A stretch of 24,526 bases of DNA, taken from the IMG/VR virus record IMGVR_UViG_3300043409_001130, positions 1 to 24,526 of that record; one strand, written 5' to 3'. Numbering within the stretch: position 1 is the stretch's first letter; each line of letters starts with the position of its first letter. The notes under the pieces were generated by a model. That model was not told the DNA's origin. It did not search any database and worked only from the letters and a program-made list of their open reading frames with translations. The position numbers and the translations under genes were made by a program. The DNA is from a virus. Below are positions 1,727 to 19,282 of this stretch, piece by piece.

Positions 1727-3352
1727 TTACCGTTCTTTCCAATAAGAATCAACTTCACGATTTCTAATGTCTAAATTAGTCAGTTTATACAATACATAAG
1801 TCGCACCGTTCTTAATAGTGGTATCAAACAGCTTATAAATCAATCCTGTGAGTAGTGATAATTTTAATTGCATAACTTTTTTGATTGCACCCGTTACCAC
1901 AAAAAGCCAATTAGTAATAACTCTTTGCCAAATAGCACTCAACCCAGAATACGGGCTGAAATTATCGTAATAAATTGTGTAAAAATATTGGTGTCTATCA
2001 CCGCTTAAAGTCCCCGCCTGTGTAGCGTGAAAGGGTGTATGGTAATTATGCCAAGTCCACATTGCGGGGAATGAAAAGTTTTTAGGCATAAACGACCATC
2101 GGGGGTAAGTAAAACTATAAGCATCTGATGGATAACCGTAACTCCAATGTGTGTTATTATTCCCCTCCTGTGTTGATGGATTGAGATAATAATTAGCCTC
2201 AATTTCTACTACATCTTTAATTGGTATATCTACCTCTTGATTAGGCACGTAGGCATCTCTTAACTTATAAAATCCCGCCGTTGCTTCAATTAACTGATTG
2301 TATGGATCAATACTGCCCTTACTAATTAACCCCGCTAAAAAGTAAGGTGGTGTTCCGTATATCCCCCCGTATATTCTATATTCGTCATCAATACTTTTAA
2401 AAATCCCCAATCCTAAATTTGGATTGTTATAAGAAATATCATTAGCGGTAAAATATCCCGGCTGCGTATAAAACACATTTGAACACTGTATATATTTAAA
2501 GTAAACCCATTTATTAGTTGCTTTATTAATGTCTAAACCGTGTTGATTTTCTATTACGCTTAAAGTATGGCTAACAGAATCACCAAAACCCGTATCCCTG
2601 AAAGCTAAATACATTGTAACTTCCCATAATTGGTCTGCTCTCTCTGCCGTGATTTCCATTTTATAAATCATTCCCCAGAACTTGCATAAGTCGTCAAACA
2701 TCATCCAGCGTGTGTACTCCGATAACTGCCCTAACTTCTTGACTCTATTGCCCACTTCATTGTGAAACCACGATAAAAGTTCGGTAACTAAATACGGTTC
2801 AATACCACCCGCCCAATTCAAATTGCTTGTATCAACTTTTAATTGTAGCGGTCTTTGTGTCGCAAAATGGCACTCGTTCATATAATCTGTAAACCTGCCA
2901 TACATAATTGCTGGCTCTCTTACCGCACTATCACCTAAATCTTTTAATTCTCTGGCAAATGAATAAACTTGTACTTTAACGTCATATAGCCCGTCTTTGT
3001 ATGTATCATTAAACCACGTTGCGGATAAATCAACCATCCCGCCAAATACTTTTCCCCAAGTTACCTTACAAACTATGCAATGATTATCTATGTTTTCGGT
3101 TAAGAACTGTCTAAGGTTCTTTCCTAAATCACTTGTTTCGGTTTGTAACTGTGAAAACCCCAAATCAAAATCGCCAAATGTTACATTGAAAGCATCTAAA
3201 CTATTCTCAAACTCCTCGCTGAATATCGGGGAATCCTCCATCTTCACACTCGATAAAACAATCTTGTCATAGAATGACGGTCTTGAATTATCATCGTGAG
3301 CAAAGTAATTTGGCACGCCATTGAATTGATATTTACGAAATTCAATTGGCAT
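1727..3352 (-). CDS. tail tip / baseplate hub-type protein
   Basis: A 541-aa protein encoded directly downstream of the tape measure gene, with an 11-nt overlap. This is where siphophages keep their distal tail (Dit), tail-associated lysin (Tal) or hub protein. It is rich in aromatic residues (many Tyr, Trp, Phe) and beta-prone; the N-terminal 150 residues (for example GKVFGGMVDLSATWF) resemble a beta-barrel tail-hub domain in general character. I see no lysozyme or peptidase active-site motif. The start is ATG with AAGGAA about 7 nt upstream. The role is inferred from synteny; the exact family is not recognised. Confidence 0.6.
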   Translation of the reverse strand: MPIEFRKYQFNGVPNYFAHDDNSRPSFYDKIVLSSVKMEDSPIFSEEFENSLDAFNVTFGDFDLGFSQLQTETSDLGKNLRQFLTENIDNHCIVCKVTWGKVFGGMVDLSATWFNDTYKDGLYDVKVQVYSFARELKDLGDSAVREPAIMYGRFTDYMNECHFATQRPLQLKVDTSNLNWAGGIEPYLVTELLSWFHNEVGNRVKKLGQLSEYTRWMMFDDLCKFWGMIYKMEITAERADQLWEVTMYLAFRDTGFGDSVSHTLSVIENQHGLDINKATNKWVYFKYIQCSNVFYTQPGYFTANDISYNNPNLGLGIFKSIDDEYRIYGGIYGTPPYFLAGLISKGSIDPYNQLIEATAGFYKLRDAYVPNQEVDIPIKDVVEIEANYYLNPSTQEGNNNTHWSYGYPSDAYSFTYPRWSFMPKNFSFPAMWTWHNYHTPFHATQAGTLSGDRHQYFYTIYYDNFSPYSGLSAIWQRVITNWLFVVTGAIKKVMQLKLSLLTGLIYKLFDTTIKNGATYVLYKLTNLDIRNREVDSYWKER

Positions 3353-5237
3353 AGTTGCGTTCCTTTAATCTTGATTGTGCTCTCGGCAAATTCTCTAATA
3401 GAAATGTTTGACCTGCTAATGTCCCTTTAAATACAAATGTCGGATTCATAGCCATACCGCCTCCGCCGTTACCCATTGGGGGAGCTTTCATCCCGCCTAA
3501 AGCACCGCCTGCCAAAGTTGATACAGCACCTCCACCGGGTATTAGTCCCAATATACTGTTTAGCGTTTGCATTGCTTTTATTACAGCCACTATACTCTCT
3601 GTTATACTTAACGCCTGAACAACATTGGATAACATTTTGCCAAAACCCGTATCCATTAATCCAAACTTTTCCAGCATTGATTGTGTAGCGGTTAGCATTG
3701 TGCCAAAACTATCGCCCATTTTCCCTAAAAGTTCATCCCAATCAACTCCGCCTGCACGTGGATTAACCCTGCCACCCTCGCTGATGTTCTTACCCGTTAT
3801 GCCCCTGCCTGCAAGTCCCGTTCTGAAAGCACCCGTAGCCAGAACAATCTCTTTTGTAATTACTTCATCTATTGCTTTCCCTAAATTCTTTAAGACCTCA
3901 ATCTCTTCTTTGTGACGGTCAATAGGTGTTTTTCCACCCTTATTTTTAACGGGGGATATAGGCAATTCCTTTGTGCCCTGTTTAGCGTCACTATCCTTAA
4001 TAGCTCCCTGTGAGGAGAGTAAACCTAAATAGAAAAGTAAAGCCCTTACTTCTTCTTTGGCAAATTCAACCGCTTGTCTAATTCCCTCCAATAACGGTGT
4101 CGGAACAGCACTGTTAAGCGTTTTTAATATTCCGCCTAAATAAGTATTTGAATCATTAGCCGCTATGCTTATCTCTTTTAGCTTTTCACTAACACCCTTG
4201 AATATCCCAATTAAATTAGTAAGAGGGATAACCATTTTTATTAGAATATCAATATGAGCTAATGCCTTATCAGAAAACTTGCCCAAAAACGAAGCAGCTT
4301 CTTTTGAACTTACTCCAAAATTATTAAGGGTTTTGTTTGCATCTTCTAATTGATTTGCAAAAAAGTCCACAAGACTATCACCCAGCTTTGCGGAAAAGTT
4401 TTCAAGAGCAACCCCAGCCGCTTCTAACTTGTCTTTGTTATCCTTTATTTTATTAGTTGCACTATCGTAAGACTCACCTGATACTTTTAACAGGGCTTGT
4501 ATCCTAATCTGCTTTTGTGCTTCTGCATCTAATTGGTCAAGTTCTTTAACACCAACAGGTAAAAGACTTTTTATGGCTTCCTCATATACCTTTTTCTGGA
4601 TACCCAATGTCTTTAATACCTTAGTTGCTCCTTCGGTAGAATTTATTAATCCTCTGAAGTTTTCATCAACCGTACCGCCATATTTATCAGCCGCATTTTC
4701 CGCAAGAGAAAACATTATGGTCTGCTCTTTCAAGGTCAAACCTAAATCTGAAGCCTGATTGGATAATTTTATAAGGTTTGCATCTGTAACTGTGCCAGCC
4801 GAAGATATTCTAAACATTTCTAATTCATCGGCAGTACCTTTAAAGTTTGCTTTTAATACTTGTAACTCTGCTCCTGCTGTTATAGAATGCCCTATGAAAT
4901 CCGTAAAGGGTTTTAACATTCCCTTTAATCCAGCTACAACCACTGTGAGGTTTTCCCCCATTTCAAGAAGTTGTAAGCCTGACATCTTACCCGTAACACC
5001 AAAGGATTTAATTAGAGATGTGGTTGTTCTTAACTCACGGGATAGGGCGGTAACTTTTGCCCCCGCCGCTTGTACTTCAGCAGAAAACGGTTTGAATTGG
5101 TTTGAAGTTTTTGCAAGTTCTTCTTTAGCAAGTCTAAGGTCTTTTTGTATATCTTTTAGACCTCTGCCTTTTTCCTCAATTACTATTTGATGTTTCTGTT
5201 CAGCCAAATTTCTTAATCCATTTAGTTCCTGTATCAA
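3342..5237 (-). CDS. tape measure protein (TTG start likely)
   Basis: A 631-aa protein with an alpha-helical, Lys/Glu/Ala-rich N-terminus (coiled coil about 10-75), a hydrophobic central part (about 325-350, VIPLTNLIGIFKG), a second hydrophobic block near 555-590, and Gly-rich tracts near the C-terminus (GGGAVSTLAGGALGG). This architecture and its position after the tail chaperones identify the tail-length ruler. At roughly 1.5 Å per residue it would predict a tail of about 95 nm. The frame has no ATG before residue 84. The best start is TTG at 5237 with AGAAG upstream, giving a 38-nt overlap with the preceding gene. A second TTG lies a little downstream, so the first few residues are uncertain. 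A transglycosylase domain is not evident. Confidence 0.85.
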   Translation of the reverse strand: MIQELNGLRNLAEQKHQIVIEEKGRGLKDIQKDLRLAKEELAKTSNQFKPFSAEVQAAGAKVTALSRELRTTTSLIKSFGVTGKMSGLQLLEMGENLTVVVAGLKGMLKPFTDFIGHSITAGAELQVLKANFKGTADELEMFRISSAGTVTDANLIKLSNQASDLGLTLKEQTIMFSLAENAADKYGGTVDENFRGLINSTEGATKVLKTLGIQKKVYEEAIKSLLPVGVKELDQLDAEAQKQIRIQALLKVSGESYDSATNKIKDNKDKLEAAGVALENFSAKLGDSLVDFFANQLEDANKTLNNFGVSSKEAASFLGKFSDKALAHIDILIKMVIPLTNLIGIFKGVSEKLKEISIAANDSNTYLGGILKTLNSAVPTPLLEGIRQAVEFAKEEVRALLFYLGLLSSQGAIKDSDAKQGTKELPISPVKNKGGKTPIDRHKEEIEVLKNLGKAIDEVITKEIVLATGAFRTGLAGRGITGKNISEGGRVNPRAGGVDWDELLGKMGDSFGTMLTATQSMLEKFGLMDTGFGKMLSNVVQALSITESIVAVIKAMQTLNSILGLIPGGGAVSTLAGGALGGMKAPPMGNGGGGMAMNPTFVFKGTLAGQTFLLENLPRAQSRLKERNYAN

Positions 5238-5622
5238 CTAACTTCTTTTGCAGTCTTTCACCTAAACCAAACCCACGCCTGCCACCCTCTTCAAGATATG
5301 TCATTACGTCATCTCTTACTTTGTCAATATAAACTATGCCACGATTTGCAGTAACCTTTTTCTTAATGGCATTAATGAGTTTTAATTGTTTACCTTTGAA
5401 AATATCGGTATATCCTAATTTGGCACTTTTCCACTTCTTGTAATCAGCCGATAAGGGTTTTAATGCCGAGCCGTCATAACTGCGTTCTGTTCTTACGTTT
5501 TCCTCGTTATCTGCTCTGGCTACTTCGGTTAATTCAGCAATCAATTCAGGCATTTGTTTTCCCATCTGCATAAATAATTTCTCTAAATCAACTCCGCTAT
5601 TTATACTTTTTATCTCAATCAT
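5200..5622 (-). CDS. Mu gpG-like / HK97 gp10-like virion morphogenesis protein
   Basis: A 140-aa protein. The pattern is an N-terminal helix, then DGSALKPLSADYKKWKSAK, then a G-x-L-type helix (KGKQLKLINAIKKKV), a short strand (RGIVYIDKV) and a basic C-terminus (GFGLGERLQKKLVDTG). This matches the general layout of phage virion morphogenesis and tail-completion proteins (Mu gpG, HK97 gp10). Its position between the tail chaperones and tape measure is unusual, because that family normally sits upstream of the tail-tube gene. The start ATG overlaps the stop of the chaperone frameshift ORF (ATGA), so translation is probably coupled. Assignment is by pattern only. Confidence 0.5.
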   Translation of the reverse strand: MIEIKSINSGVDLEKLFMQMGKQMPELIAELTEVARADNEENVRTERSYDGSALKPLSADYKKWKSAKLGYTDIFKGKQLKLINAIKKKVTANRGIVYIDKVRDDVMTYLEEGGRRGFGLGERLQKKLVDTGTKWIKKFG

Positions 5623-6178: not shown

Positions 6179-6342
6179 TTATCACTATCCAATCCGCTAA
6201 AAGGTTTTGCTTTATCCGGCGGTTCAGGAATGGCAATCTTTTCCCTTACCAGATAATGTTCCATTTCCTTTGATACTTTCGGGCTTTCCCCTGCCTTGTG
6301 TTTCTTATCCTCAAATACCCAATTAACCAATAGCGTTATCAT
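6175..6342 (-). CDS. small tail-module protein, 55 aa
   Basis: A 55-aa ORF that exactly fills the space between the tail-tube gene and the chaperone. Its ATG shares one base with the TAA of the upstream gene (TAATG) and its TGA overlaps the next ATG (ATGA). This tight packing is strong evidence for a real gene. The layout is an N-terminal strand (MITLLVNWVFED), a KAGE turn, a helix (KEMEHYLVREKIA) and a Pro/Lys-rich tail. It resembles in pattern the small phage proteins of type 'K-x-G ... hydrophobic helix ... G-x-A-x-P' often found next to tail genes. Function unknown. Confidence 0.65.
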   Translation of the reverse strand: MITLLVNWVFEDKKHKAGESPKVSKEMEHYLVREKIAIPEPPDKAKPFSGLDSDK

Positions 6343-6875
6343 TATGTGGTCTCCACAATAAGATATTTCTGGTTAATAGGCACTGATGCAGTTGCTGAAT
6401 TGTAAGCACCCAAAGATGCTAACAATGCGGCTGATAATGAAACAGCGGCTGAATTAACCAATGCGGTTAGTTTCTGTGCGTTACTTGAAGCTCCGCCCGG
6501 TGCAGATGCGTTAAACTGCGGTGCTACTTTGCATATCGGAAAGTACCATTCCTGCTTAACGTTGTTAAAGTCCCTGCGGTAATAAGCACCCCAATAAGTG
6601 TTCTTTACATCATTAGCAAAGAAATCTATTGTGGTCTTATCTGTTTGCATTAAAGTGAACGGCATTGAAAGATCGTAGTCGTATTCAGTCTGAACTACAT
6701 CGCCTTTTTCGTTCTTGAACGTTTCCTCACTTGTTGCCAACACCCTTTGGGATGTGGAAATATGCCCCACATTAAACTGTGTGAATGTGGAGAAAACAGA
6801 CCCGTCATCATTAACTTTCCAGAGGATAAGTATATTGCCGGATTTGTCGTTTACTGCGCCTACATCGTATGGCAT
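6342..6875 (-). CDS. major tail tube protein (probable)
   Basis: A 177-aa beta-rich protein (for example VQTEYDYDLSMPFTLMQTD) with a flexible Ala/Ser-rich segment around 125-160 (ASAPGGASSN) and a final strand (KYLIVETT). It lies just upstream of the small 55-aa gene and the tail chaperones, the standard place for the tube protein in siphophages. Its length is normal for a tube subunit without an Ig-like extension. The ATG has a good SD (AAGGAG) 7 nt upstream, as expected for a highly expressed virion protein, even though it starts inside the end of the preceding glycosyltransferase gene (16-nt overlap). Confidence 0.7.
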   Translation of the reverse strand: MPYDVGAVNDKSGNILILWKVNDDGSVFSTFTQFNVGHISTSQRVLATSEETFKNEKGDVVQTEYDYDLSMPFTLMQTDKTTIDFFANDVKNTYWGAYYRRDFNNVKQEWYFPICKVAPQFNASAPGGASSNAQKLTALVNSAAVSLSAALLASLGAYNSATASVPINQKYLIVETT

Positions 6876-7858
6876 AATTGCTCCTTAATTTGTTTTACTT
6901 TATAAATTAATTCGTTGTCTATAAATTCATTTGTATGTTCTAAATCCGCAGTCAGTCCCGATTCAACATCTTTCATCATTTCTAACTGTTTTATGGTTTC
7001 ATCAAATTGTTCTTTTTGAAATAAACAATTTGCCAATGCTAACCTTGCACGCCTTTGATTAGGCACCAACTCTAAACTATGTTTCAAGTACATCAGTGCA
7101 GTATCACCACGTTCAAGATTATTCCACGCTAAAAACAGGGTATAAGATAACAGAGCACGCTTGTCGTTATCCAGCCCGTCAAGAAATAAAGCCACTGTCC
7201 CGTATTCAATTACCCTTTCCCACCGCTGAAAGTTACCATAAGCACGGGTTAAGTTATACCTAACATCTTTGTTATCAGGTTCATCAATTAACTGTTGAAG
7301 ATGTAATTTAATATTACGTTCTGATTTAGCTTGCTTATCCTCTTCGGTTTTAAAGTCGTATCCTGTATGATAAATAATTATATCAGTTAATCCTGTTGTA
7401 TGTCCCTTGTCAATCAGTACCTCGTGAGAGCGGTTAATATACCGTATGTCGGGCAGGTTCTTAAATAATCTGTAATGCTGGCATTTGATATGATTGCCAC
7501 CGTCAATATAATTCCACTGGATTAAAGTCATTATATCCACACCTGATTCCATTGCTTTGCGTATTTTTGCCTCCGAACCATCTTCAAGATATTCGTCACC
7601 GTCAAGTATTAAAATGTAATCACCTGTTGCTTTGTCAATTGAGTAATTACGTGCTTTGGAAAAGTCATCTATCCAATCAAAATCATAGCTTTTTACACTC
7701 GCCTGTTTGGCAATTGACCAGCCATTAACCCTATCCATAGTCCAGTCCCTACTCCCCGTATCAACTATGATAATCTCGTCAGCCCATTTAACTGATTCCA
7801 AACTTCTTATGATTGTGCTTTCACAATCACGCACTATGTAGCAAACTGATAATCTCAA
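6860..7858 (-). CDS. GT2 glycosyltransferase with C-terminal TPR-like region
   Basis: 332-aa GT-A fold enzyme. The N-terminus MRLSVCYIVRD with IIIVDTGSRDWT (residues 29-40) is the typical nucleotide-sugar binding start of family 2. ARNYS (69-73) and the metal-binding ILILDGDE (DxD at 86-88) follow. Residues about 195-310 form helical repeats (NLTRAYGNFQRW..., RARLALANCLFQKEQFDETIKQLE) resembling TPRs, as in SunS-type protein glycosyltransferases and many Bacillota or phage relatives. The start is TTG at 7858, forming a TTGA overlap with the preceding stop and with AAGGGA upstream; the family's usual N-terminus supports this codon. It lies directly before the tail-tube gene, suggesting modification of a virion protein or of the host surface. 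Acceptor unknown. Confidence 0.85.
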   Translation of the reverse strand: MRLSVCYIVRDCESTIIRSLESVKWADEIIIVDTGSRDWTMDRVNGWSIAKQASVKSYDFDWIDDFSKARNYSIDKATGDYILILDGDEYLEDGSEAKIRKAMESGVDIMTLIQWNYIDGGNHIKCQHYRLFKNLPDIRYINRSHEVLIDKGHTTGLTDIIIYHTGYDFKTEEDKQAKSERNIKLHLQQLIDEPDNKDVRYNLTRAYGNFQRWERVIEYGTVALFLDGLDNDKRALLSYTLFLAWNNLERGDTALMYLKHSLELVPNQRRARLALANCLFQKEQFDETIKQLEMMKDVESGLTADLEHTNEFIDNELIYKVKQIKEQLCHTM

Positions 7859-8160
7859 TTTAAAGTCCCTTGTCCTGTAATGCCGGTTTCTTTATATTTG
7901 CATACCTGTCTATTGTCTAAATAAGACGGCTCTACCCCCATAAAATTTACAGCCAAAACAACATGACCACCGCCCACCACATTGTATTGCCACTCACAAA
8001 TTTCTTTTATGTCGTCAAGTAAATTTTGGGTAATGATGCAAGTCGCACTTTTTGAGCCTATGTAAATATAGTTATCTGTTACACGCCATTCAAATTCTGC
8101 GGATTTAATCCTTTCGGTTAATAACGATATTAACTTTAGTTTTTGTTCTTGATTTATCAT
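7855..8160 (-). CDS. unknown protein in connector/tail region, 101 aa
   Basis: No family recognised. A mixed alpha/beta protein with an N-terminal helix (EQKLKLISLLTERIK), a central strand-helix section and a Gly-rich turn (VVGGGHVVLAVNF). There is no signal peptide or membrane segment. The ATG lacks an obvious SD (AT-rich leader). Its TGA overlaps the TTG start of the first glycosyltransferase, so the two are probably translationally coupled. It could be a small connector/tail protein or an accessory to the glycosyltransferase; the sequence does not decide. Confidence 0.5.
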   Translation of the reverse strand: MINQEQKLKLISLLTERIKSAEFEWRVTDNYIYIGSKSATCIITQNLLDDIKEICEWQYNVVGGGHVVLAVNFMGVEPSYLDNRQVCKYKETGITGQGTLN

Positions 8161-8172
8161 ATTATTATTTGT

Positions 8173-8610
8173 TTAAGTCGCATCAACTATCCTTAATTGA
8201 AAGTTTATTGAGGGCTGTAAATAATTGCCCTTGACTACATCCTCTAAGCCCGTTACATTCATATTCAATACATCCAATACCGCAAAATTGGTAGTCTTGT
8301 ATCCGCCCTTAATTAACTTCACTATCGGCTGTATATAGTCATCAATTACATTCTCATATTCATCTGAATCTTTTTTATACAATCCAAAAGTGAAATTGAT
8401 TGACACATTGACCTCAAACAGTTTACCGCTTTCGTCATCTACTAACTGATAGTCCTTAATCCTGATTGTATAATACCTGTGCATTTGGTTAGCTGGTAAC
8501 TTATCCAAGTCAAGACTTGCGGTGGTTTCAGCAATATCACTCGAAGTCGTCCCGTTAAATGTGGTGATCTTTGCATCAAGAAAAGTTCTTATGTGCTGGT
8601 AAAATGCCAT
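8173..8610 (-). CDS. tail terminator / tail completion-type protein (tentative)
   Basis: A 145-aa protein with an N-terminal amphipathic helix (FYQHIRTFLDAKI), several beta-strands (YYTIRIKDYQLV, FEVNVSINFTFGLYKK), a helix (NVIDDYIQPIVKLIKGG) and a C-terminal strand ending FQLRIVDAT. A helix-flanked beta sheet of about 140 residues, encoded between the connector and tail-tube genes, is what tail terminator proteins look like. The ATG has GGAAGA upstream. I cannot name a family, so the role is positional inference. Confidence 0.45.
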   Translation of the reverse strand: MAFYQHIRTFLDAKITTFNGTTSSDIAETTASLDLDKLPANQMHRYYTIRIKDYQLVDDESGKLFEVNVSINFTFGLYKKDSDEYENVIDDYIQPIVKLIKGGYKTTNFAVLDVLNMNVTGLEDVVKGNYLQPSINFQLRIVDAT

Positions 8611-8955
8611 TTACTTATTCTTCCAAATGTCTATATCAACCCTGCCCGCTCCGGCTAACCATAAGTCAGGATATGAAGCGGAACTAAAAGTGCCCAGATA
8701 CGTGAACACCCCAGCCCTGACAGTCCGCCTGATTGTATTGGTAGAATTAAAGAACACCGTAGCGGTATCCGTTAAGGCGTAAATAGCTATGTGGTACTCA
8801 CCATATAACTGTGCCATTGAATACAGTGAAGAGCCGTAGGCTGTGTTAATCAATGCGGTTAAAGTCAGCGTATCAGCCGCCAGAGTGCCAGTGAAGTGCT
8901 GTTGCGAATAACCGATTGAGCAAATAAAAAGTAATACGAATAATAGTTTTTTCAT
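8611..8955 (-). CDS. small secreted protein with Sec signal peptide
   Basis: The preferred start is the ATG at 8955, giving MKKLLFVLLFICSIGYSQQ. That is a textbook signal peptide: KK n-region, LLFVLLFICSI hydrophobic core and a likely cleavage after GYS. The mature part is about 95 aa, beta-rich and Thr/Ala-rich (GTLAADTLTLTALINTAYG). An in-frame ATG at 8973 would add six residues and overlap the upstream glycosyltransferase by 13 nt; the start at 8955 leaves a 5-nt gap and a proper n-region. The Cys in the core lacks a good lipobox. An exported protein is odd within a connector/tail gene block. It could act in the periplasm or at the cell surface, or be a moron. Function unknown. Confidence 0.7.
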   Translation of the reverse strand: MKKLLFVLLFICSIGYSQQHFTGTLAADTLTLTALINTAYGSSLYSMAQLYGEYHIAIYALTDTATVFFNSTNTIRRTVRAGVFTYLGTFSSASYPDLWLAGAGRVDIDIWKNK

Positions 8956-8960
8956 TTTTA

Positions 8961-9962
8961 TTATTGATAACATTTTGAAATCATTTCATTAACCTGCCCT
9001 TTGTTTAGCAGTATATCTTGATGCATATCTGTTTTCATACAATCCCTGTTTCTTAAAGTCTTTAGTAATTTCATAGCCTCATTCTTCTTACCCTCTGCCT
9101 TTAGTAACTCCGCCTCGATTATTATGCCTAAATTCTGTATCGGAGCAAGTTTTAAACTGTCTTTAATCCTGTCCCTCGATAACATCTTGTAAAAGTTTGA
9201 ATATTGTTTATATGCATCTGCCAAAAGCACGTGAGCGTGTGCCTGTATATTGCCTGCCATCTTATCCTGAATAGCAAGATTAAAATAATCAATGGCTTTC
9301 TCAATCTGCCTGCCCTGTGCGTAAGCAATACCCAAATAATAATTCTTATACGGGTGTCCCTGATACTCTATCCCGTCAATTACTCTTTGCGTTTTTACCA
9401 TATCGTGTATGTTGTTGTAAAAACCCCAGTGCTCAAACATCAAATCAGTGCCAACAATCCGCAAATGATTAACTTCAAGAAAAGTGTCCACTGTTTCGTG
9501 TACAGGAAAGTCATACTTGATGCCTAAACCGTTACGCCATAACCTTGTTGTTGAACAAGGAACGTCATCTTTGCCCGTTTTATGCACCTGCAAGAGCCGA
9601 AAAGCGTCTGCGTCAGAATAATTGGTAATTAAATCCTCAATCTGTTTGGGATTAACCACCCTTTCATCAGTGTCAAGTATCAAAATCCAGCCTTTAGTGG
9701 ATTTACTTAACGCATAATTACGTGCTACATTGAATAAGAATAAAAACCGGAACTTACTCCATAAGAAAACTTTAAACACAAACCAATTCCTAAACCAACT
9801 CTTGTAATACCTGACATTTTTATATTCAGATGCCAAACTTTTTAAATTCTCTTTTGAGCCTGTATCAAGTAATACAACTTCATCAGCAAATTGGAAGTTT
9901 TCCAGTGCTGGTCTTACCTTGTCAATAGGTTCATTCGTAATTAGATTTATACTTATATTCAA
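8961..9962 (-). CDS. second GT2 glycosyltransferase with TPR-like tail
   Basis: A 333-aa homologue of the 332-aa enzyme encoded downstream. It shares ADEVVLLDTGS (residues 26-36), ARNYALSK (80-87) and ILILDTDE (DxD at 97-99), then a catalytic-domain remainder with HETVD, and from about 205 helical repeats (KNYYLGIAYAQGRQIEKAIDYF) of TPR type. It differs by an aromatic, basic and hydrophobic insertion at about 56-77. The start is TTG at 9962, again in a TTGA overlap with the preceding stop, after GGTGG. The two enzymes are diverged, so this is an old pair and not a recent duplication. Probable donor is a nucleotide sugar; the acceptor could be a virion protein or host envelope. Confidence 0.85.
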   Translation of the reverse strand: MNISINLITNEPIDKVRPALENFQFADEVVLLDTGSKENLKSLASEYKNVRYYKSWFRNWFVFKVFLWSKFRFLFLFNVARNYALSKSTKGWILILDTDERVVNPKQIEDLITNYSDADAFRLLQVHKTGKDDVPCSTTRLWRNGLGIKYDFPVHETVDTFLEVNHLRIVGTDLMFEHWGFYNNIHDMVKTQRVIDGIEYQGHPYKNYYLGIAYAQGRQIEKAIDYFNLAIQDKMAGNIQAHAHVLLADAYKQYSNFYKMLSRDRIKDSLKLAPIQNLGIIIEAELLKAEGKKNEAMKLLKTLRNRDCMKTDMHQDILLNKGQVNEMISKCYQ

Positions 9963-10615
9963 TGTACCACCGGGATAAATTTTAAATCCTGTTTTTCTGA
10001 TTGTGTTATCTCACCATCCCCATCTTCATCGTAAAACGGCTGGAAACCCTGCCATCGGTCTTTATACTTCAATGTCAATTCTTTATACGCCATATCATAA
10101 GCATCATTTTCTGTTACCCGTGCATTCAGCATTATAAGGCTTAACCATTTCAATTTATATAGCTGGTCATAATTATCTGATTCAACCAAGCTAACCGTAG
10201 AGGTCATTGAGCCTGTGTTGGAATACTTGTAATACTGGTATTCATCAGTCAGTAAAAAGGTGCTTGTCCCCGTTGCTGTTAGGCTTGCACTTGTACCGCA
10301 GGTTACAAACGTATCATCGGGGTCGTTAGCACCCGTGATTGTTACAACTGCCGTTGCTGTTACTGTTGATACCACTATGACACATCTGTTACGATTGCCT
10401 ATGTCAGCATTTTCATTTTCATCAACTGTATCCAGAACCAAAGGCGGTCTTAAATTCCTAACCTGAAATCCCCTGTCAACAAAGTCCGCTCTTACTTCAC
10501 TCTCAGCTTGTAATTTCTGATTGCTGTAAGTGGTCTGCCCTGCCCATAGATATACGTCTAATTCGGGATAGTAACCTGATAAATCAGCTTGAAGTATATA
10601 ATTTTTTAATGCCAT
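9959..10615 (-). CDS. head-tail connector-like protein with EF-hand loop
   Basis: 218 aa. The N-terminal part (about 1-50, LQADLSGYYPELDVYLW ... SEVRADFVDRGF) and the C-terminal part (about 145-195, YDQLYKLKWLSLIMLNAR ... AYKELTLKYKDRW) are helical and resemble head-tail adaptor proteins. Between them (about 75-140) lies a Thr/Val-rich beta segment that looks like an inserted domain. Residues 196-207, DEDGDGEITQSE, are a perfect EF-hand calcium loop (ligand positions 1, 3, 5, 7, 9, 12 are D, D, D, E, T, E). Gene order (after capsid and cement genes) supports a connector. Its ATG lies within the end of the 55-aa ORF upstream (10-nt overlap). Confidence 0.55.
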   Translation of the reverse strand: MALKNYILQADLSGYYPELDVYLWAGQTTYSNQKLQAESEVRADFVDRGFQVRNLRPPLVLDTVDENENADIGNRNRCVIVVSTVTATAVVTITGANDPDDTFVTCGTSASLTATGTSTFLLTDEYQYYKYSNTGSMTSTVSLVESDNYDQLYKLKWLSLIMLNARVTENDAYDMAYKELTLKYKDRWQGFQPFYDEDGDGEITQSEKQDLKFIPVVH

Positions 10616-10807: not shown

Positions 10808-11203
10808 TTAGTTTACAGGTGCTGTCGCGAATGCTGTGATTGTGCAAGCTGAAGCTGCTGAACCTGTTAAGGTATAACGCAGTCTTACAAACTTTGCCAC
10901 ATCTGCGGGCAGTGTAAAATGTTTCTCGAAATTAGCCGAACCCGTTACAGCCGTGCTAATGTCCTGTACAAATGTAGTCGGAGCGGTTGCTGAACCTGCG
11001 GCTACTTCAACTAAAATAGTTGAGGCGGCTGTTGCCGTGATACCCTGAACCTGAACCACTACCTGTATAGGTTTACCCTTACCCATCTGTGTTGAACCCA
11101 AATTGAGTTCTGACGAGTAAGTGGCGGTTGTTACCGTTAGAGCTACTGCATTGGAAAATGCTAAATCCAAGTCAAACGCTCTGTAATATTGGTCTAAAGC
11201 CAT
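10808..11203 (-). CDS. Bbp16-like capsid cement (decoration) protein
   Basis: A 131-aa beta-sandwich-type protein. An N-terminal region (ALDQYYRAFDLDLAFSNA) is followed by the characteristic stretch LNLGSTQMGKGKPIQVVVQV (residues about 33-52) and Thr/Ala-rich strands. This matches the pattern of Bordetella phage BPP-1 Bbp16-type cement proteins, which trimerise on the capsid surface and stabilise the expanded head. It lies 15 nt downstream of the capsid gene, as in that family. The SD (AAGGAGGAAATAATAAAATG) is the strongest in the window, in keeping with high copy number. A GC-rich terminator follows. Confidence 0.8.
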   Translation of the reverse strand: MALDQYYRAFDLDLAFSNAVALTVTTATYSSELNLGSTQMGKGKPIQVVVQVQGITATAASTILVEVAAGSATAPTTFVQDISTAVTGSANFEKHFTLPADVAKFVRLRYTLTGSAASACTITAFATAPVN

Positions 11204-11218
11204 TTTATTATTTCCTCC

Positions 11219-12154
11219 TTACTCTGTGTTAGTGATATTTTCATCGATTAAGATGGGAATGCCGTCATAGGTTAAGATACCTTTTTTAAGTTCGGTATCC
11301 TGTGCCTGATAATAGATGGTTGATTTCAAACCCTTTAACAGGGTCTTACCTGTTTTATTAACAAGTATTACGTCAGGTGAAAACGGGAACATCTGGTCTA
11401 TGATTGCATCAATGTTAGCCGCAGTCGGAGCTATGGCTGAAGTTAAGCTCTTATATCTGCCAACTGACCTTGTATCATAAACTGCAAGTCCTGCCATCCA
11501 CTGTATCTTTGATACATAGCCGTAGAACTGATTTGTTGCACCGTTATCAGTAATTAATTCTCTGCCCATATCTTCAGCGGAAAGCGTCATTGATTGAACA
11601 CCCTCTACGCCTCTTATCCTGCCCTGCAATGTATTAGCGTCAGCAAATGATACAAAGTAAATCGAGGTTGAAGAACCCGAAGCACCTGTACCTGCCTGAA
11701 CTGTTGCCACAGCAGTCGAAGATAAGATTGTTGATAAACCGTCAAACTGCAAAGCGTTTGTTGAACCTGCTCCATAATAAACATCGGAGGCAAACAAATT
11801 GCCAACGGCTGCTATGTGTGAAGCATCTTCTTCATTACGCAAAGCGTTCACGCCCTCTGCGTACATCATTGCCTCTACCTCATCAACAACTGACCGCGAT
11901 TCGTAAATTTTCGTTTCGTAGGTTGTTTGTATGATTTGAGATTTGGAGGCAGCTATACCCTGATTAAAGCCCCTGCGTGAAGCTGTGGGTAATCCCACAC
12001 GGGTCTTTACTCTGTAAGAATTACCCACAATAGTTCTGAATGGAAGTCTTTCAACTAAGGCGTTAGCCTGAGCCATAGATTCCACCAAACCCACTGATCT
12101 GTCATTCCCTGACCTTTTAGCAAGGTCTAATAGTGTTAATTTAGTAGTTGCCAT
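11219..12154 (-). CDS. major capsid protein (HK97 fold, Bbp17-like)
   Basis: 311 aa. The start MATTKLTLLDLAKRSGN, then IVGNSYRVKTRVGLPTA, RRGFNQGIAASKS (about 60-72) and an E-loop/spine-helix region (ESRSVVDEVEAMMYAEGV) follow the layout of HK97-fold coat proteins found with Bbp16-type cement proteins. The A-domain includes FSPDVILVNKTGKTLLKGL. It is encoded after the scaffold and before the cement, the standard order. The leader before the ATG is A-rich with no SD, which is surprising for the most abundant virion protein. A mature N-terminus created by protease is not indicated, since no protease gene is present. Confidence 0.85.
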   Translation of the reverse strand: MATTKLTLLDLAKRSGNDRSVGLVESMAQANALVERLPFRTIVGNSYRVKTRVGLPTASRRGFNQGIAASKSQIIQTTYETKIYESRSVVDEVEAMMYAEGVNALRNEEDASHIAAVGNLFASDVYYGAGSTNALQFDGLSTILSSTAVATVQAGTGASGSSTSIYFVSFADANTLQGRIRGVEGVQSMTLSAEDMGRELITDNGATNQFYGYVSKIQWMAGLAVYDTRSVGRYKSLTSAIAPTAANIDAIIDQMFPFSPDVILVNKTGKTLLKGLKSTIYYQAQDTELKKGILTYDGIPILIDENITNTE

Positions 12155-12704: not shown

Positions 12705-12893
12705 TTATTTATATGATATTTCATTATCCATTTCCACAATCTGCTCAGACAAGACCTCAATCATTAGATTCTTGTCCGCTTTGATTGCCTTGATTCCCTT
12801 TATCAGCGTTTCCGCCGTTTCCTGTGTTGTTGAATCCCGTGCCTGTATTAGGGTCAGCACTTTCTGTTTTAAATCTTGCTTTAAGTTCTGCAT
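12705..12893 (-). CDS. possible small helical protein overlapping the portal 3' end
   Basis: A 62-aa ORF whose first 137 nt overlap the portal gene in another frame. It is almost entirely helical and charged (LKQKVLTLIQARDS, AIKADKNLMIEVLSEQIVEM). A good SD (AGAAGA) sits a few bases before its ATG, and its stop lies 21 nt before the scaffold start, filling an otherwise empty gap. In the portal frame the overlapped part encodes a low-complexity Gly/Asn tail, as expected if the second frame is the constrained one. It could be a scaffold accessory or a minor head protein. It may also be a chance ORF. Confidence 0.45.
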   Translation of the reverse strand: MQNLKQDLKQKVLTLIQARDSTTQETAETLIKGIKAIKADKNLMIEVLSEQIVEMDNEISYK

Positions 12894-14256
12894 TTTCTTC
12901 TAATTGTTTAATAGCTTGTTCAGTTGTTAAATCAGGGTCTTCAGCCTGCAAGTAATCTACCTTAGATTTCAAACCCTGTTCAAGTTCAAATGTCCATTTA
13001 TTAACCTTGTCAGATTCATTCAATGGAGTAGTCTTTTCAATAAAATTAACCTTAAAAGTTAAATTCTCATTTAGCTTTTCAGCAGCGTGATAATTGTAAA
13101 CTGCCAGCACTTTTTTATATAGTTTCTCTTCAAAGTCAATTAGCGTAATCTTATCTTCCTGCTGTTGTAACTCCAACTCTTCCATATCGAGAGCCTTTGA
13201 AATGCCGGGTGCGTTTGTGTTTTCCGTTGCTGTTTGAGCAGATAAACCTTTTAAGTTAGCAATTCTTTCGTAGTTAGTCTTTAACGCTAAATCCAATTCA
13301 GTCAACGGTGCTTGCGTTGCCACTGATTCAATCGAGGGCTGTACTTGTTCAGGCTTAACATTGTTAGCCGTTAAGATCATACCCGGCGTTAAGGGAATCT
13401 GCTCTGAAGTACCAAAGTTAATAGCGTATATAATACCCAGCCCTTGCAATATCCTGACGTATATGTTGTTGTTTGCTTCAATATCGTGCCAGATATTCTG
13501 GTCGGTTAAATCCATCATACCTATACCGTAGTAATCCTGCCCTTTGTTAAAGCGTAATTCCTGCGAGGGGATTACTTTATATGGATTAAGCATATCGAGA
13601 TTGTCATCTGATACAGCTTTTTTCTCGAATATGGTAACAAACTCTTTAACCCCGTTCAGTGTGGTTTCCAGTGTACCAGTAGCCACCATATAATAATGCT
13701 CGTCTTTAGTCCATACCTCCATAGCATCTACCTCTTCACCGTTAATCTGTGGTAACAAGATGTCAAATGCAATCAGGTCTTTATAATAAACATTTTCAAA
13801 GTTGCTCCATACCGTAAAGAAATTGGGTGTCCATATATCGAACTCTAACTGGTCAGTAACTGTACGCCAAACAGGTTTCACTTCTACAATGTTCATAAAC
13901 TTTGCAGCCCTGTACCATTCAATCTGACACTGACCCACCCCCGCCTGCTTGTAAACCTCATTCAGTAATTCGGTCTGCTCTTCATCAATATCGCCATCAT
14001 CTTTAACCAAATAACGGTCAATGCCTGAGTGATACACTTTGCAAATGTTCTTTAATATCTTACCCACTAAATCAATGTGGATATTCTTTAACATTCCAGC
14101 GGTCTTTGAGCTGAACATACCGTTAGATGTCATATAATCGCCCTGCACTTCTTTTATCTCTTCGGTGTCGTTCTGCAATAGATTATACATTATCCAAGCA
14201 GTAGCCTTACGGTTCTTGTCTGATTCGATTAATGTCTTAACGTAATTTATGTCCAT
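12757..14256 (-). CDS. portal protein (SPP1 gp6-like)
   Basis: 499 aa. It is helical at the N-terminus (residues 1-70), followed by the portal core with mixed beta (DQLEFDIWTPNFFTVWSN) and the long helical part with ANLKGLSAQTATENTNAPGI around 330-350, where SPP1-type portals have their channel region. The C-terminal 40 residues are a low-complexity Gly/Asn/Gln tail. It forms the dodecameric DNA-entry ring and binds the terminase encoded just upstream. The terminase TAA and portal ATG share a base (TAATG). Order terminase, portal, scaffold, capsid supports the call. Confidence 0.8.
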   Translation of the reverse strand: MDINYVKTLIESDKNRKATAWIMYNLLQNDTEEIKEVQGDYMTSNGMFSSKTAGMLKNIHIDLVGKILKNICKVYHSGIDRYLVKDDGDIDEEQTELLNEVYKQAGVGQCQIEWYRAAKFMNIVEVKPVWRTVTDQLEFDIWTPNFFTVWSNFENVYYKDLIAFDILLPQINGEEVDAMEVWTKDEHYYMVATGTLETTLNGVKEFVTIFEKKAVSDDNLDMLNPYKVIPSQELRFNKGQDYYGIGMMDLTDQNIWHDIEANNNIYVRILQGLGIIYAINFGTSEQIPLTPGMILTANNVKPEQVQPSIESVATQAPLTELDLALKTNYERIANLKGLSAQTATENTNAPGISKALDMEELELQQQEDKITLIDFEEKLYKKVLAVYNYHAAEKLNENLTFKVNFIEKTTPLNESDKVNKWTFELEQGLKSKVDYLQAEDPDLTTEQAIKQLEENAELKARFKTESADPNTGTGFNNTGNGGNADKGNQGNQSGQESND

Positions 14257-15593
14257 TATCTTCTGCCTATTTCTGTTTTAGGTAAACCGTGAACAGGGTA
14301 TTCGTAATCATTATAATAATCAACCGCCCTGCACGAATGACCTCTTAACGGATCTCTATTGTCTAACTCCTTTGAGTTGGATTTCCAAATACAATACTCC
14401 CAGTCTTTCAATAATGATTCACAATCTTTAGGGTTAATAAACTGTTTTCTCGTTCCCAACGCATTGCATAGCTGTGCGTTTGTAGCCCCAATTGAATCGC
14501 GGATGGATAAACAGGGCTTTATCCTGAGTTCAATATTTGTTTTGTTATGGAAGTAGTTCTGTATTATCTCCCAGTCATTGAAGCTGGAGTTTGAAGTGTG
14601 TTTCCTTCCTGCATAATCACCGTAAAAGTTTACTCTTGCCGGGTATGTTTCCAAAGTCTTAAAATAGTCGTCCAATATACTGCACATTGTTTCGGTGTTT
14701 GTGTACTGATATGATAATGACTTGACCCACACCGTATTATCTATATTGCGGTCATTGAATCTTTGTCCCACTACCCAGCTCATTGGGTTTTCAGTAGCAT
14801 TAAAGTCGCAAGCAACTATAACGGGCAGGTTAGGATTAGTCTTATACTCACGATTGTTTAACAGATTGTATGCATAATACGGATTGCCTGATTCGGTTTC
14901 AAATGATGCTAAATACTCACGCTTGTAATCCTGCTCTGATAGGTTAGACTTTGCATTAATCAATTGCTGGTCATCAAGTATATCCTCCGCAGTCCAATGG
15001 TAACTCCCCCAATTAGCCAAACCATTTACACCTTTTAGGTAGTCGTCATAAAAATGGTTCTTCCCTAACGGTCTGCCCTCTTTGATACACCACCCGTAAG
15101 TGTCGTTTATCATAGGTTCAATTGATTCTGAATAAACATCGGGGTCACATTCCTGATATTCGGTTATCACTATACCGTGCATTAACTGACCCTGAATACG
15201 CTTAAACTCTTTTAATCCCACTACACGCAGAACCGAACCGCCATTGAACTCAATCTTCATCCCTGTTTCATTAATCTTCTTGACACACCAGTTAGGGCTT
15301 AACTTCTTTAAATCATCCCAGAATATTTCCCTGCTTTGGCTTAATGTCGGAGCACCTGCGTAATAATGCTTGTCTGTATTGTTTATGCACTCTTTAATCA
15401 AATAACGCTTGGCAAATCGTTCAGTCTTGAATGACCGCCTTCCAGCCGCAACCACTACATTCTGATAAGTCTTGTTAAACAAGTCCGCTTTGAGCTTAAT
15501 CTGTACAGGGTGATTAACCGCCTTTGGATTAATGTCAAACCATCTCGGTGTCAGTAGTGTGCTCAATATCAGTATGCTAAAGATTATGTTCAA
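14256..15593 (-). CDS. terL: terminase large subunit
   Basis: A 445-aa DNA-packaging motor. Walker A is the variant GRRSFKT (51-57; the usual Gly before Lys is Phe). A downstream GAPTLSQSREIFWDDL segment and a Walker B-like GIVITEYQ follow (140-147; the catalytic Glu is E145, the usual preceding Asp is Thr). The C-terminal RNase H-like nuclease shows its acidic residues at D263 (ACDFN), D326 (YGDYAGR) and D425 (AVDYYND). The longest frame starts at TTG 15593, 17 nt inside the small-terminase gene. Its first 14 residues are hydrophobic and atypical, so a slightly later start (for example the TTG near residue 10) is possible. Confidence 0.9.
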   Translation of the reverse strand: MNIIFSILILSTLLTPRWFDINPKAVNHPVQIKLKADLFNKTYQNVVVAAGRRSFKTERFAKRYLIKECINNTDKHYYAGAPTLSQSREIFWDDLKKLSPNWCVKKINETGMKIEFNGGSVLRVVGLKEFKRIQGQLMHGIVITEYQECDPDVYSESIEPMINDTYGWCIKEGRPLGKNHFYDDYLKGVNGLANWGSYHWTAEDILDDQQLINAKSNLSEQDYKREYLASFETESGNPYYAYNLLNNREYKTNPNLPVIVACDFNATENPMSWVVGQRFNDRNIDNTVWVKSLSYQYTNTETMCSILDDYFKTLETYPARVNFYGDYAGRKHTSNSSFNDWEIIQNYFHNKTNIELRIKPCLSIRDSIGATNAQLCNALGTRKQFINPKDCESLLKDWEYCIWKSNSKELDNRDPLRGHSCRAVDYYNDYEYPVHGLPKTEIGRR

Positions 15594-16881: not shown

Positions 16882-17035
16882 CCAGACACGCCAGCCCGAT
16901 TAAACACACTGCAAGCTGTGTCGAATAGATGTAAAACTTGATGAAGTTACGGAATTGGCTCATATCCAAGCCGGCTATGACCATAAACCCTACACAAATT
17001 AATGCGTATATGATTATGAAGTGTTGTTTTTTCAT
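16874..17035 (-). CDS. small membrane protein with two TM segments, 53 aa
   Basis: A 53-aa ORF: MKKQHF, a hydrophobic helix (about 6-22, FIIIYALICVGFMVIAG), a short polar linker (DMSQFRNFIKF) and a second helix (about 35-51, ending LAVCLIGLAC). It overlaps the methyltransferase stop as ATGA and the next gene by 8 nt, so it is part of a packed operon. Small size and two helices are compatible with a holin, but there is no endolysin beside it, so that is only a possibility. Confidence 0.6.
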   Translation of the reverse strand: MKKQHFIIIYALICVGFMVIAGLDMSQFRNFIKFYIYSTQLAVCLIGLACLDE

Positions 17036-18744
17036 ATGAATAAATTAGTTTGAGAATCACGTTCTTTATCTTCAATTGTTTTCTGTCCCTTAGCCCACTT
17101 AACCCGTGCTTCAGCTATATCACAATATTCCTTTTCACGTTCTATGCCTATGTAGTCAAAGCCCTCCATTACACAAGCCATTAAAGTCGTTCCACTTCCT
17201 GTGAACGGGTCAAGACAAACTCCGCCCTTTGGTGTTACAAGCCTTACAAGGTATTGCATAAGTTTAAGGGGTTTTACTGTGCTATGAAAATTACTTAAGT
17301 CTTGCCAATTTTCGTTTTCTTTTATTAAGGATAGCATTTTCAACGCAACACGATTTGCACCACGGGCTAATTCCAGATTTCCGTTTGTAATAGTTAGTAG
17401 CCACCTCTTTAAACTCTCCGCACTTTCGGCAGGGTTTCCACCATTCGCCTTTTCGGATTTCACAGCCGGAGTGGATTCTTTTGTGAGTAAGGGCGTCAAT
17501 GAGTTCAAGGTTTTCAATTCTATTATCCTGTTTATTTCCGTTAATATGATGGATAAACATTCCCGATGGCACAGCCCCATTATGCTTACGCCATTCTCTA
17601 CGGTGTTGAAACTCACTTGAACCGTATCTGACATAACCCTTTTTAGTAATTGAACCGCTACCGTGTTTTCTTCTTTGCATTGTTTTTTATCTGTAATATA
17701 CTTAACGGTTAGATAACAGTCAAGCCCGTTATTACGCTCACCCCGTGAACTTTTGGCACAGTAAAAAAAACGTGATGCACCGCCTGTGGATGATTCACGG
17801 GCTTCGTGTATTCGTGCATAATTTTTACCACTCATACAGTTATTATGAGATTCTTTCGTCTGCTGTCCCTGTTTAAACACTCCGCTTTTCAACTCCCCAC
17901 TCATTTCATCCAACATCACCCCTGCAATTTCATCAAAGATTATGTTTGCGGGAAATCTGCCTTGAGTATGTGAATTTCTGTTTATTGGTTTTTTGCCCGT
18001 AAATATGTTATCGCTTTGGGTAGTGTTTTTTCTATGATATTCATCTGACTTATCTTCTATCTCTATCCTTGTTGCATCAATATTAATCCCGCCTGTACCA
18101 TACTTCAAAACATTTTCAGCTACCGTTGTTGGAATTGGTTTACGTGCTACACAAATAGGTTCACAGGCTGGCTTTAAAGCTGTACCGTAGCCGTTGTATT
18201 GTATTGCTTCGGGGGTTGCGGGATTAGTTAAATTATCTTTGGTCGGGTCAAAACCACTATTATTTCCCCATTCGCCTTTTAGCTTACTCCAATTTTCCCT
18301 ATTCGGTCTATCAGTTCCGTCTGGTCTTTTATATTTTCCTATTACCTCACGTTGCGCCCCCTTAATCTTATCAATAGCCTTACCTATATCCAATGACTTA
18401 GGAAAACCACTGCCATATATCCAGCTTATCATATCCCTTATTTCAAAACCTGCATCTTCAATATTTACAGTCATTCTGTGATACGTTCTTGTACCTGCAA
18501 ATGATAATAAATGTCCACCGGGCTTTAATACCCTTAAACATTCTTTCCATAATTCTACCTTTGGCACTTCGTAATCCCAATGCTTATTCATAAATGATAA
18601 GCCGTAGGGTTATGGAGGGTCAGTAACTATTGCATCAATACTATCATTAGGCATTTTGCGAATTACCTCGATATTATCTCCGCAAATAATCTGACCCGAT
18701 TTCTCCGTTATTTGTTGTGTCTTTTTATATGACACTTCAGGCAT
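17032..18744 (-). pseudogene. DNA methyltransferase (N6A/N4C, beta order) interrupted by in-frame TAA
   Basis: One continuous frame from ATG 18744 to 17032, except for TAA at 18610-18612. Before it lie IICGDNIEV, SIDAIV and TDPP. After it come PYGLSFMNKHWD and the methyltransferase body (RVLKPGGHLLSFAGTRTY, SGFPKSLDIGKAID). A 6-nt insertion in the codons for the catalytic DPPY (motif IV) creates the stop. The part after it can be read from ATG 18591 (519 aa) but lacks motif IV. The C-terminus keeps HSTVKPLKLM and the SAM-binding DPFTGSGTT (residues 461-469 of that part). Motif IV before motif I is the beta-class order. Residues 291-433 are a non-family insert lying over the first HNH gene. 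As it stands, methylation activity is unlikely unless TAA is read through; an assembly error is also possible. Confidence 0.75.
17291..17680 (-). CDS. HNH endonuclease nested inside the methyltransferase gene
   Basis: 129 aa, in a different frame from the surrounding methyltransferase. A basic N-terminus (MQRRKHGSGSITKKGY) precedes the HNH core FIHHINGNKQDNRIENLEL with H44-H45, Asn 53/57 and H66/H70 (THKRIHSG). A C-terminal zinc-ribbon-like part has C84-x2-C87 and C108-x2-C111. This is a free-standing homing-type endonuclease (HNH_3-like). It lies exactly between the methyltransferase segments ERNNGLD and NFHSTVKP; its TAA is one base before the Asn codon. No strong SD precedes its ATG. It may spread into methyltransferase alleles without it. 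Confidence 0.85.
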   Translation of the reverse strand: MQRRKHGSGSITKKGYVRYGSSEFQHRREWRKHNGAVPSGMFIHHINGNKQDNRIENLELIDALTHKRIHSGCEIRKGEWWKPCRKCGEFKEVATNYYKRKSGISPWCKSCCVENAILNKRKRKLARLK

Positions 18745-19247
18745 AGCGTTATTAAATTTTGTGAATTGTTGTTTTTACCGTTATAGTTTTCAATATGGTG
18801 ACACTGGATTAATTTATTGCTATCGGCATAGTCTCTTTTACTTTGGCACTTAACGCCACAATCTTGACAAATATATTTATCCCTTTTATATATTTCTTTT
18901 CTTATGGTTTCCCAATCATTACCACGCCAACCTCTTTTAAGGTACGAAGCCCCATCAACATAAGAGGGGTTTTTAATCCCTGCCATATTTTGTTTATGGG
19001 CAATTTCAAAGCACTTACGGGAACAATATTTTTGAGTTGATTTATGATATATATATTCATTTTGGCAAATTAAACAAATGCGGTTTGATTTTCTCTTACA
19101 GTTATATGGCTTTTTAATATTTCTTTTAGTAAATCCCAATGAACGCCCCTTATACGCACAATCTTGTGAACAATAAACGGCTTGACGTTCCTTATATATT
19201 TTTTTACTAAACTTTTTTTGACAAACAGGGCAAATATGATTTTCCAT
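18708..19247 (-). CDS. HNH endonuclease with N-terminal zinc fingers
   Basis: 179 aa. Two Cys4 clusters come first (C6-x2-C9 with C26-x3-C30; C58-x2-C61 with C75-x3-C79), then a GIKNPSYVDG linker, then the HNH nuclease: C127-x2-C130, HH at 150-151 (IQCHHIENYNG), Asn 164, and LCLKCHIKRH (C169, C172, H173, H177). Typical of free-standing phage homing endonucleases that bind DNA through zinc modules. It lies between a methyltransferase 5' fragment (19283-19354) and a second methyltransferase 5' end whose ATG (18744) overlaps its last 37 nt. No clear SD. Confidence 0.85.
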   Translation of the reverse strand: MENHICPVCQKKFSKKIYKERQAVYCSQDCAYKGRSLGFTKRNIKKPYNCKRKSNRICLICQNEYIYHKSTQKYCSRKCFEIAHKQNMAGIKNPSYVDGASYLKRGWRGNDWETIRKEIYKRDKYICQDCGVKCQSKRDYADSNKLIQCHHIENYNGKNNNSQNLITLCLKCHIKRHNK

Positions 19248-19282
19248 AAAACAAAGATAACTAATTCATAAACCAATAACAA

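What the first reader, a model, noticed from the sequence alone, without database searches (positions are those of the whole stretch)
6860..9962. Two GT2-TPR glycosyltransferases inside a virion operon, both with coupled TTG starts
Seen: two diverged GT2 enzymes with DxD motifs and C-terminal helical repeats lie among connector, terminator and tail-tube genes. Each starts with TTG in a TTGA overlap with the preceding stop. Known: SunS-type GT2 enzymes with TPR-like tails glycosylate peptides or proteins. Inference: the phage may glycosylate its own tail or capsid proteins, the low-efficiency starts keeping enzyme levels below those of structural proteins.
Basis: partly seen in the sequence, partly recalled or inferred. 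Interest (0 to 1): 0.6.

Follow-up and report, generated by a model that had tools for sequence, protein, structure and literature searches.

The report
Phage enzymes sugar-coating their own particles
An uncultured phage carries, among the genes that build its particle, two diverged enzymes of the kind that attaches sugars to proteins, so it probably decorates its own head or tail with sugar; related enzymes sit beside capsid or fibre genes in many other phages.

Summary
GT-A (6860-7858, minus strand, 332 aa) and GT-B (8961-9962, minus, 333 aa) are two diverged family-2 glycosyltransferases with intact DxD motifs and C-terminal TPR helices. Both start with TTG in a TTGA overlap, inside a head-tail gene cluster (terminase, epsilon15-type capsid protein, Bbp16-like head protein, tape measure). 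Their closest solved relatives by sequence and predicted fold are protein or peptide glycosyltransferases: GmaR (flagellin O-GlcNAc) and SunS/ThuS (glycocins).
The family is common in uncultured phages. One clade often sits 2-4 genes behind a capsid gene (10 of 19 dereplicated loci; 0 of 20 in the other clade). The other often sits beside collagen-like G-X-T fibre genes (13 of 20; 0 of 19). Six cultured jumbo phages keep a homologue near the head-maturation protease.
Virion glycosylation is the best explanation (about 0.6), but no glycan or substrate was shown. The TTG starts are real but not conserved, and terminase and tape measure apparently also use TTG, so the 'low enzyme dose' idea is untested. 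The 80 closest capsid relatives lack a GT: the enzymes are accessory. Phage virion glycosylation is known (mycobacteriophages) with other GT families, so this is a new variant of a known kind.

The parts
6860..7858 (-). GT-A: GT2 + TPR protein glycosyltransferase, 332 aa, TTG start
   Evidence: Pfam GT2 1.6e-13 and TPR_19; PHROG 13126 1.8e-23; GmaR 1.5e-20, SunS about 1e-12; AF2 pLDDT 88.8, SunS Z 25.4
8961..9962 (-). GT-B: diverged GT2 + TPR protein glycosyltransferase, 333 aa, TTG start, with an aromatic insert at about residues 57-76
   Evidence: Pfam GT2 2.4e-6; GmaR 4.5e-8; AF2 pLDDT 86.6; SunS Z 21.7 over residues 1-286
7855..7858 (-). TTGA overlap: stop of 7855-8160 and start of GT-A
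   Evidence: sequence
9959..9962 (-). TTGA overlap: stop of 9959-10615 and start of GT-B
   Evidence: sequence
7595..7603 (-). GT-A DxD motif (D86-G-D88)
   Evidence: both Asp invariant in alignments A8/A9 of 30 sequences
9666..9674 (-). GT-B DxD motif (D97-T-D99)
   Evidence: both Asp invariant in alignment A8
11219..12154 (-). major capsid protein, epsilon15 gp7 type
   Evidence: NCBIfam 2.9e-46, PHROG 212 6.5e-41
10808..11203 (-). Bbp16-like head protein, possible substrate
   Evidence: PHROG 427 4.3e-12; Pfam Bbp16 7e-4; homologues beside the MCP in L032 and L042
9959..10615 (-). unknown 218-aa protein in connector position, coupled to GT-B
   Evidence: gene order only; no convincing family match
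8611..8973 (-). 120-aa protein with a hydrophobic signal-like N-terminus, overlaps the GT-B 3' end
   Evidence: hydropathy
8173..8610 (-). 145-aa protein in tail-terminator position
   Evidence: gene order only
7855..8160 (-). 101-aa unknown protein, coupled to GT-A
   Evidence: no family match
6342..6875 (-). 177-aa protein in tail-tube position, overlaps the GT-A 3' end by 16 bases; candidate GT-A substrate
   Evidence: gene order only; no confident family match
5200..5622 (-). tail-completion / virion-morphogenesis-like protein
   Evidence: PHROG 26 0.0015, Pfam Phage_tail_S 0.0082, weak
3342..5237 (-). tape-measure protein, apparent TTG start
   Evidence: PHROG 167 4.2e-5; start census
12757..14256 (-). 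portal by position
   Evidence: gene order only
14256..15593 (-). terminase large subunit, apparent TTG start
   Evidence: PHROG 2 1.7e-26, tblastn, start census

Best explanation
GT-A and GT-B are soluble, probably active GT2-TPR protein glycosyltransferases of the SunS/GmaR type, made late together with the virion proteins. The TPR arm binds a polypeptide and the GT-A-fold domain transfers a sugar from a host nucleotide sugar to Ser/Thr (less likely Cys). The likeliest substrates are the phage's own virion proteins: GT-B for the capsid, head-decoration or connector proteins just upstream, GT-A for the tail-tube candidate just downstream. Shown: family, predicted fold, intact motifs, co-directional overlapping genes in a virion cluster, and recurrent virion adjacency of homologues. 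Inferred: activity, sugar, residue, substrate and benefit.
For: Best sequence match for both is GmaR, the Listeria flagellin GlcNAc transferase (function from PMC9638930). Best fold matches are SunS and ThuS across both domains, Z 25.4/24.0 for A and 21.7/20.6 for B, against 19.8 and 16.5 for the next family. Catalytic-motif residues are invariant among 30 family members. Both genes overlap virion-cluster genes. Homologue clades track their neighbours: MCP within 6 genes in 10/19 versus 0/20 loci; collagen-like G-X-Y ORF within 3 genes in 13/20 versus 0/19; Fisher 1.5e-4 and 1.3e-5, not corrected for shared ancestry. GT-B has the same spacing (MCP three genes upstream). Six cultured jumbo phages carry a homologue next to or a few genes before the head-maturation protease. 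Virion glycosylation by phage GTs is established in mycobacteriophages, on capsid and tail tube (PMC12363180, PMC12619734).
Against: No glycan, substrate or activity was demonstrated. The 80 nearest capsid relatives lack the GT within the DNA held (30 have at least 2.5 kb downstream), so the enzymes are dispensable. Not all homologues sit by virion genes: Tunturi_5, S-SRM01 and L017 do not. GT-B has an aromatic, hydrophobic insert that could bind membranes. Placement alone does not define a substrate.
Confidence: 0.6

Rival explanations
1. The enzymes modify host surface glycans (LPS core or capsule), changing receptors and blocking superinfection.
For: PHROG 13126 is labelled moron, beta-1,4-glycosyltransferase; some phage GTs encoded between portal and MCP have been read this way (Gratiaviridae, PMC8008677); GT-B has an aromatic hydrophobic insert.
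Against: No transmembrane-like stretch in GT-A and no flippase or GtrA/GtrB genes recognised beside them; NCBIfam puts GT-A nearest SunS, ahead of any LPS or EPS enzyme; the fold match covers the TPR arm; virion-cluster placement.
Confidence: 0.15
2. They glycosylate a host protein (flagellin, pilin, surface protein or a defence factor) during infection.
For: GmaR, the nearest characterised relative, modifies flagellin.
Against: Does not explain the clade-specific pairing of homologues with capsid or collagen-like fibre genes.
Confidence: 0.12
3. They are cargo (morons) without a virion role, or modify phage DNA or a small peptide.
For: Absent from the nearest capsid relatives; GT-B is on a very long branch.
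Against: Two separate, intact, motif-complete genes; no base-modification gene and no glycocin precursor/transporter set recognised in the window.
Confidence: 0.13

Closest known systems
SunS / ThuS (glycocin S-glycosyltransferases; SunS is encoded by prophage SPbeta)
   Same: GT2 domain plus TPR-like helical arm in the same arrangement; top structural match for both proteins
   Different: 16-24% identity; TIGR04195 score 64 against a cut-off of 350 for GT-A and no hit for GT-B; no glycocin precursor or transporter beside them, virion cluster instead (SPbeta context)
GmaR (Listeria flagellin O-GlcNAc transferase and anti-repressor)
   Same: closest sequence match in the PDB for both; GT2 followed by TPR; substrate is a self-assembling filament protein
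   Different: 637 aa with linker and anti-repressor domains that are missing here
Mycobacteriophage virion glycosyltransferases (Che8 gp108-110; Corndog and Myrna enzymes not compared)
   Same: proposed job: glycosylate capsid and tail tube (PMC12363180)
   Different: no convincing homology to the window enzymes or their family profile; in Che8 they are encoded near the genome end, not among virion genes
GTs of jumbo phages PaBG, HRDY3, JA29, fHe-Yen9-02, SNUABM_5, Afa-NA1
   Same: same broad family; sit in a cluster near the head maturation protease
   Different: unrelated, much larger phages; about 16-21% identity to GT-A for the three aligned

Membership tests
GT2 (GT-A fold) glycosyltransferase | Pfam Glycos_transf_2 above the gathering score | tested here: met
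   A 51.3 and B 28.0 bits against 23.3
GT2 (GT-A fold) glycosyltransferase | DxD metal/nucleotide motif | tested here: met
   DGD 86-88 and DTD 97-99, Asp invariant in 30 rows
GT2-TPR protein/peptide glycosyltransferases (SunS/ThuS/GmaR type) | GT2 domain followed by a TPR arm in the same arrangement | tested here: met
   AF2 models; SunS Z 25.4 and 21.7 over both domains
GT2-TPR protein/peptide glycosyltransferases (SunS/ThuS/GmaR type) | transfers sugar to a polypeptide | not testable with these tools
   needs an enzyme assay
SunS equivalog (TIGR04195) | score above the curated cut-off | tested here: not met
   GT-A 64.2 against 350; GT-B no hit
SunS equivalog (TIGR04195) | glycocin precursor and transporter genes adjacent | tested here: not met
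   none seen in the window gene list; present in SPbeta
Mycobacteriophage-type virion GTs (Che8) | homology to Che8 gp108/109/110 | tested here: not met
   HMM and hhalign comparison, only a weak local match to gp108
Phage virion glycosylation systems (functional class) | glycan on a virion protein | not testable with these tools
   needs mass spectrometry
Phage virion glycosylation systems (functional class) | GT encoded with the virion genes | tested here: met
   gene cluster from terminase to tail

The most novel reading that the evidence does not exclude
SunS/GmaR-type GT2-TPR enzymes form a widespread, so far unrecognised phage system that glycosylates virion proteins, each enzyme clade being dedicated to the virion protein encoded beside it: one to the capsid or its decoration protein, another to collagen-like G-X-T tail fibres. 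The window phage carries two such enzymes, one for the head side and one for the tail tube.
Probability: 0.4. Interest if true: 0.72.

Novelty: new variant of a known kind. Interest (0 to 1): 0.52.

Why it matters
Phage virion glycosylation has been shown in few phages. If this family does it, a simple gene-context rule would predict sugar-coated phages, and which of their proteins carries the sugar, across hundreds of lineages, with consequences for adsorption, antibody recognition and particle stability. It would also give an experimentally handy set of soluble enzymes with paired natural substrates.

Tried and rejected
Close relatives of GT-A, GT-B and the MCP were sought in viral contigs with single proteins: none. 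'Listeria phage' and 'Enterococcus phage' hits looked at first like phage relatives but read as host DNA (motA-motB-gmaR-cheV; a glycocin-like operon). The idea that the GTs belong to the epsilon15-type head module was rejected: phiV10, AF, RapA, two further podoviruses and 80 metagenomic MCP relatives show none. Conserved TTG starts were rejected: homologues start mostly with ATG. A recent tandem duplication was rejected by the tree. Membership in the Che8 GT families was rejected. The first MCP alignment was too diverse to scan with. A genome scan with GT-A gave only Firmicutes GTs at 34-37%, so no host assignment. No Rfam match in the window.

Full report
What is there. The window is a whole 24,526-base virus record. 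The virion genes run on the minus strand: terminase subunits, portal position, scaffold position, epsilon15-type major capsid protein, a Bbp16-like head protein, then short head-tail genes, tape measure and distal tail genes. GT-A (6860-7858) and GT-B (8961-9962) lie between the head protein and the tape measure. Each begins with TTG inside a TTGA that also holds the stop of the gene before. The labels connector, terminator and tail tube for the immediate neighbours are plausible from gene order but no library confirmed them.

Start codons. TTG is the only start that keeps the GT-B domain whole, and the only sensible one for GT-A. Among the 20 virion-cluster genes 15 start with ATG, 4 with TTG (both enzymes and, apparently, large terminase and tape measure) and 1 with GTG. 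Both enzymes drawing TTG has a chance of 6/190, about 0.03 (own arithmetic). All four are expected to be low-copy proteins, so a dosage role is imaginable, but homologues start mostly with ATG (60 of 80 rows, some imprecise). The TTGA coupling is therefore a local feature.

What the enzymes are. Pfam gives GT2 for both and TPR for A. By sequence the best solved relative of both is GmaR, A 1.5e-20 and B 4.5e-8; A also matches SunS at about 1e-12. AlphaFold models from a 30-sequence alignment are good: B pLDDT 86.6, A 88.8, pTM 0.83 each. SunS and ThuS are the best structural matches over GT domain and TPR arm together: Z 25.4 and 24.0 for A, 21.7 and 20.6 for B; the next family (WrtF) has 19.8 and 16.5 and, for A, covers the catalytic domain only. 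D33-T-G-S36, the DxD and one histidine (GT-A H145) are invariant in all 30. SunS equivalog membership is not met. The two are about 24% identical and not sisters; B has a very long branch.

How the family is placed in other phages. A profile scan of viral contigs found at least 431 relatives. In six loci an MCP homologous to the window's lies a few genes before the GT. For 142 genes flanking the GT in non-redundant loci, the most frequent PHROG matches are virion families: tail fibre, collagen-like minor tail, major head protein. In a further sample read protein by protein, about half the loci had a recognised virion or packaging neighbour, while one sat by a primase. The tree has two large supported clades. 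After dereplication, 10 of 19 loci of the first have an MCP within six genes and none a collagen-like ORF within three; 13 of 20 of the second have a collagen-like G-X-Y ORF within three genes and none an MCP. The MCP queries were drawn partly from members of the first clade, and shared ancestry is not removed, so the p-values (1.5e-4, 1.3e-5) are optimistic. GT-B has the head-side spacing; its tree place near that clade is unsupported. Cultured jumbo phages of Erwinia, Dickeya, Yersinia, Pseudomonas and Alcaligenes keep a homologue next to or a few genes before the head-maturation protease. Exceptions exist.

What speaks for caution. The 80 closest MCP relatives carry no such GT in the DNA held, so the enzymes are accessory. 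GT-B has a 20-residue aromatic insert. No substrate, sugar or activity was shown.

Explanation. GmaR, SunS and ThuS all act on polypeptides; TPR arms are protein-binding scaffolds, and the GmaR authors propose that its TPR domain recognises flagellin (PMC9638930). Together with the placement, the likeliest role is glycosylation of the phage's own virion proteins. Precedents: capsid and tail tube of mycobacteriophages are glycosylated by phage enzymes (PMC12363180, PMC12619734, citing Freeman et al. 2023), and glycoproteins were detected in jumbo phage XacN1, which encodes two GTs (PMC5852040). The Che8 enzymes show no convincing homology to the window's. Others have read virion-embedded GTs as capsule modifiers (PMC8008677); that rival is kept at 0.15.

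Verdict. Observation confirmed; interpretation partly supported; new variant of a known kind; interest 0.52.

Noticed in passing
L013, L016, L041, L045, L050, L054, L062, L063, L072, L081 and others (GT at about 8000 in most loci): A whole clade of GT2-TPR enzymes often lies beside phage ORFs with collagen-like G-X-T repeats (13 of 20 dereplicated loci, none in the other large clade). Such Thr-rich repeats are glycosylated in Bacillus spore collagen-like proteins (my own knowledge), so these fibres are natural candidate substrates.
   Followed up: partly
window 17032-19354 (-): A DNA methylase gene (PF01555) looks interrupted twice by HNH endonuclease ORFs: 18708-19247, and 17291-17680 in another frame inside the C-terminal part. 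No Rfam intron was found.
   Followed up: partly
window 8611-8973 (-): A 120-aa protein in the head-tail cluster with a signal-peptide-like N-terminus (MKKLLFVLLFICSIGYSQQ), unusual for a virion gene.
   Followed up: no
L023, L028, L042, L060: Head operons of other phages hold small sugar cassettes near the GT: by eye, an oxidoreductase, a hexapeptide acyltransferase and a nucleotide-sugar epimerase (not all in each), as if the phage made its own sugar donor.
   Followed up: no
L007, L008, L010, L180, L181, L183: In jumbo phages of five host genera a GT of this family keeps nearly the same place, near an NAD-dependent DNA ligase and the head maturation protease.
   Followed up: partly
L003 (OR848533), L004 (OR846634): GenBank records named Listeria phage and Enterococcus phage appear to be host DNA: a flagellar gmaR operon and a glycocin-like operon.
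   Followed up: partly
window 3342-5237 (-) and 14256-15593 (-): Tape measure and large terminase also appear to start with TTG; with the two enzymes, all TTG genes of the cluster encode proteins expected to be low-copy.
   Followed up: partly
window 8961-9962, residues 57-76 of GT-B: An insert rich in Trp and Phe (FRNWFVFKVFLWSKFRFLFL) between a strand and the ARN helix, absent from the other aligned GTs and of low model confidence; it may bind a membrane or the acceptor.
   Followed up: no
L103:16328-16918, L139:9983-10579: At the far end of the tail module of MCP relatives that lack the GT, an ORF that by eye resembles a GT-A-fold enzyme (CIFCFSGDALPLRECIKGAI...).
   Followed up: no
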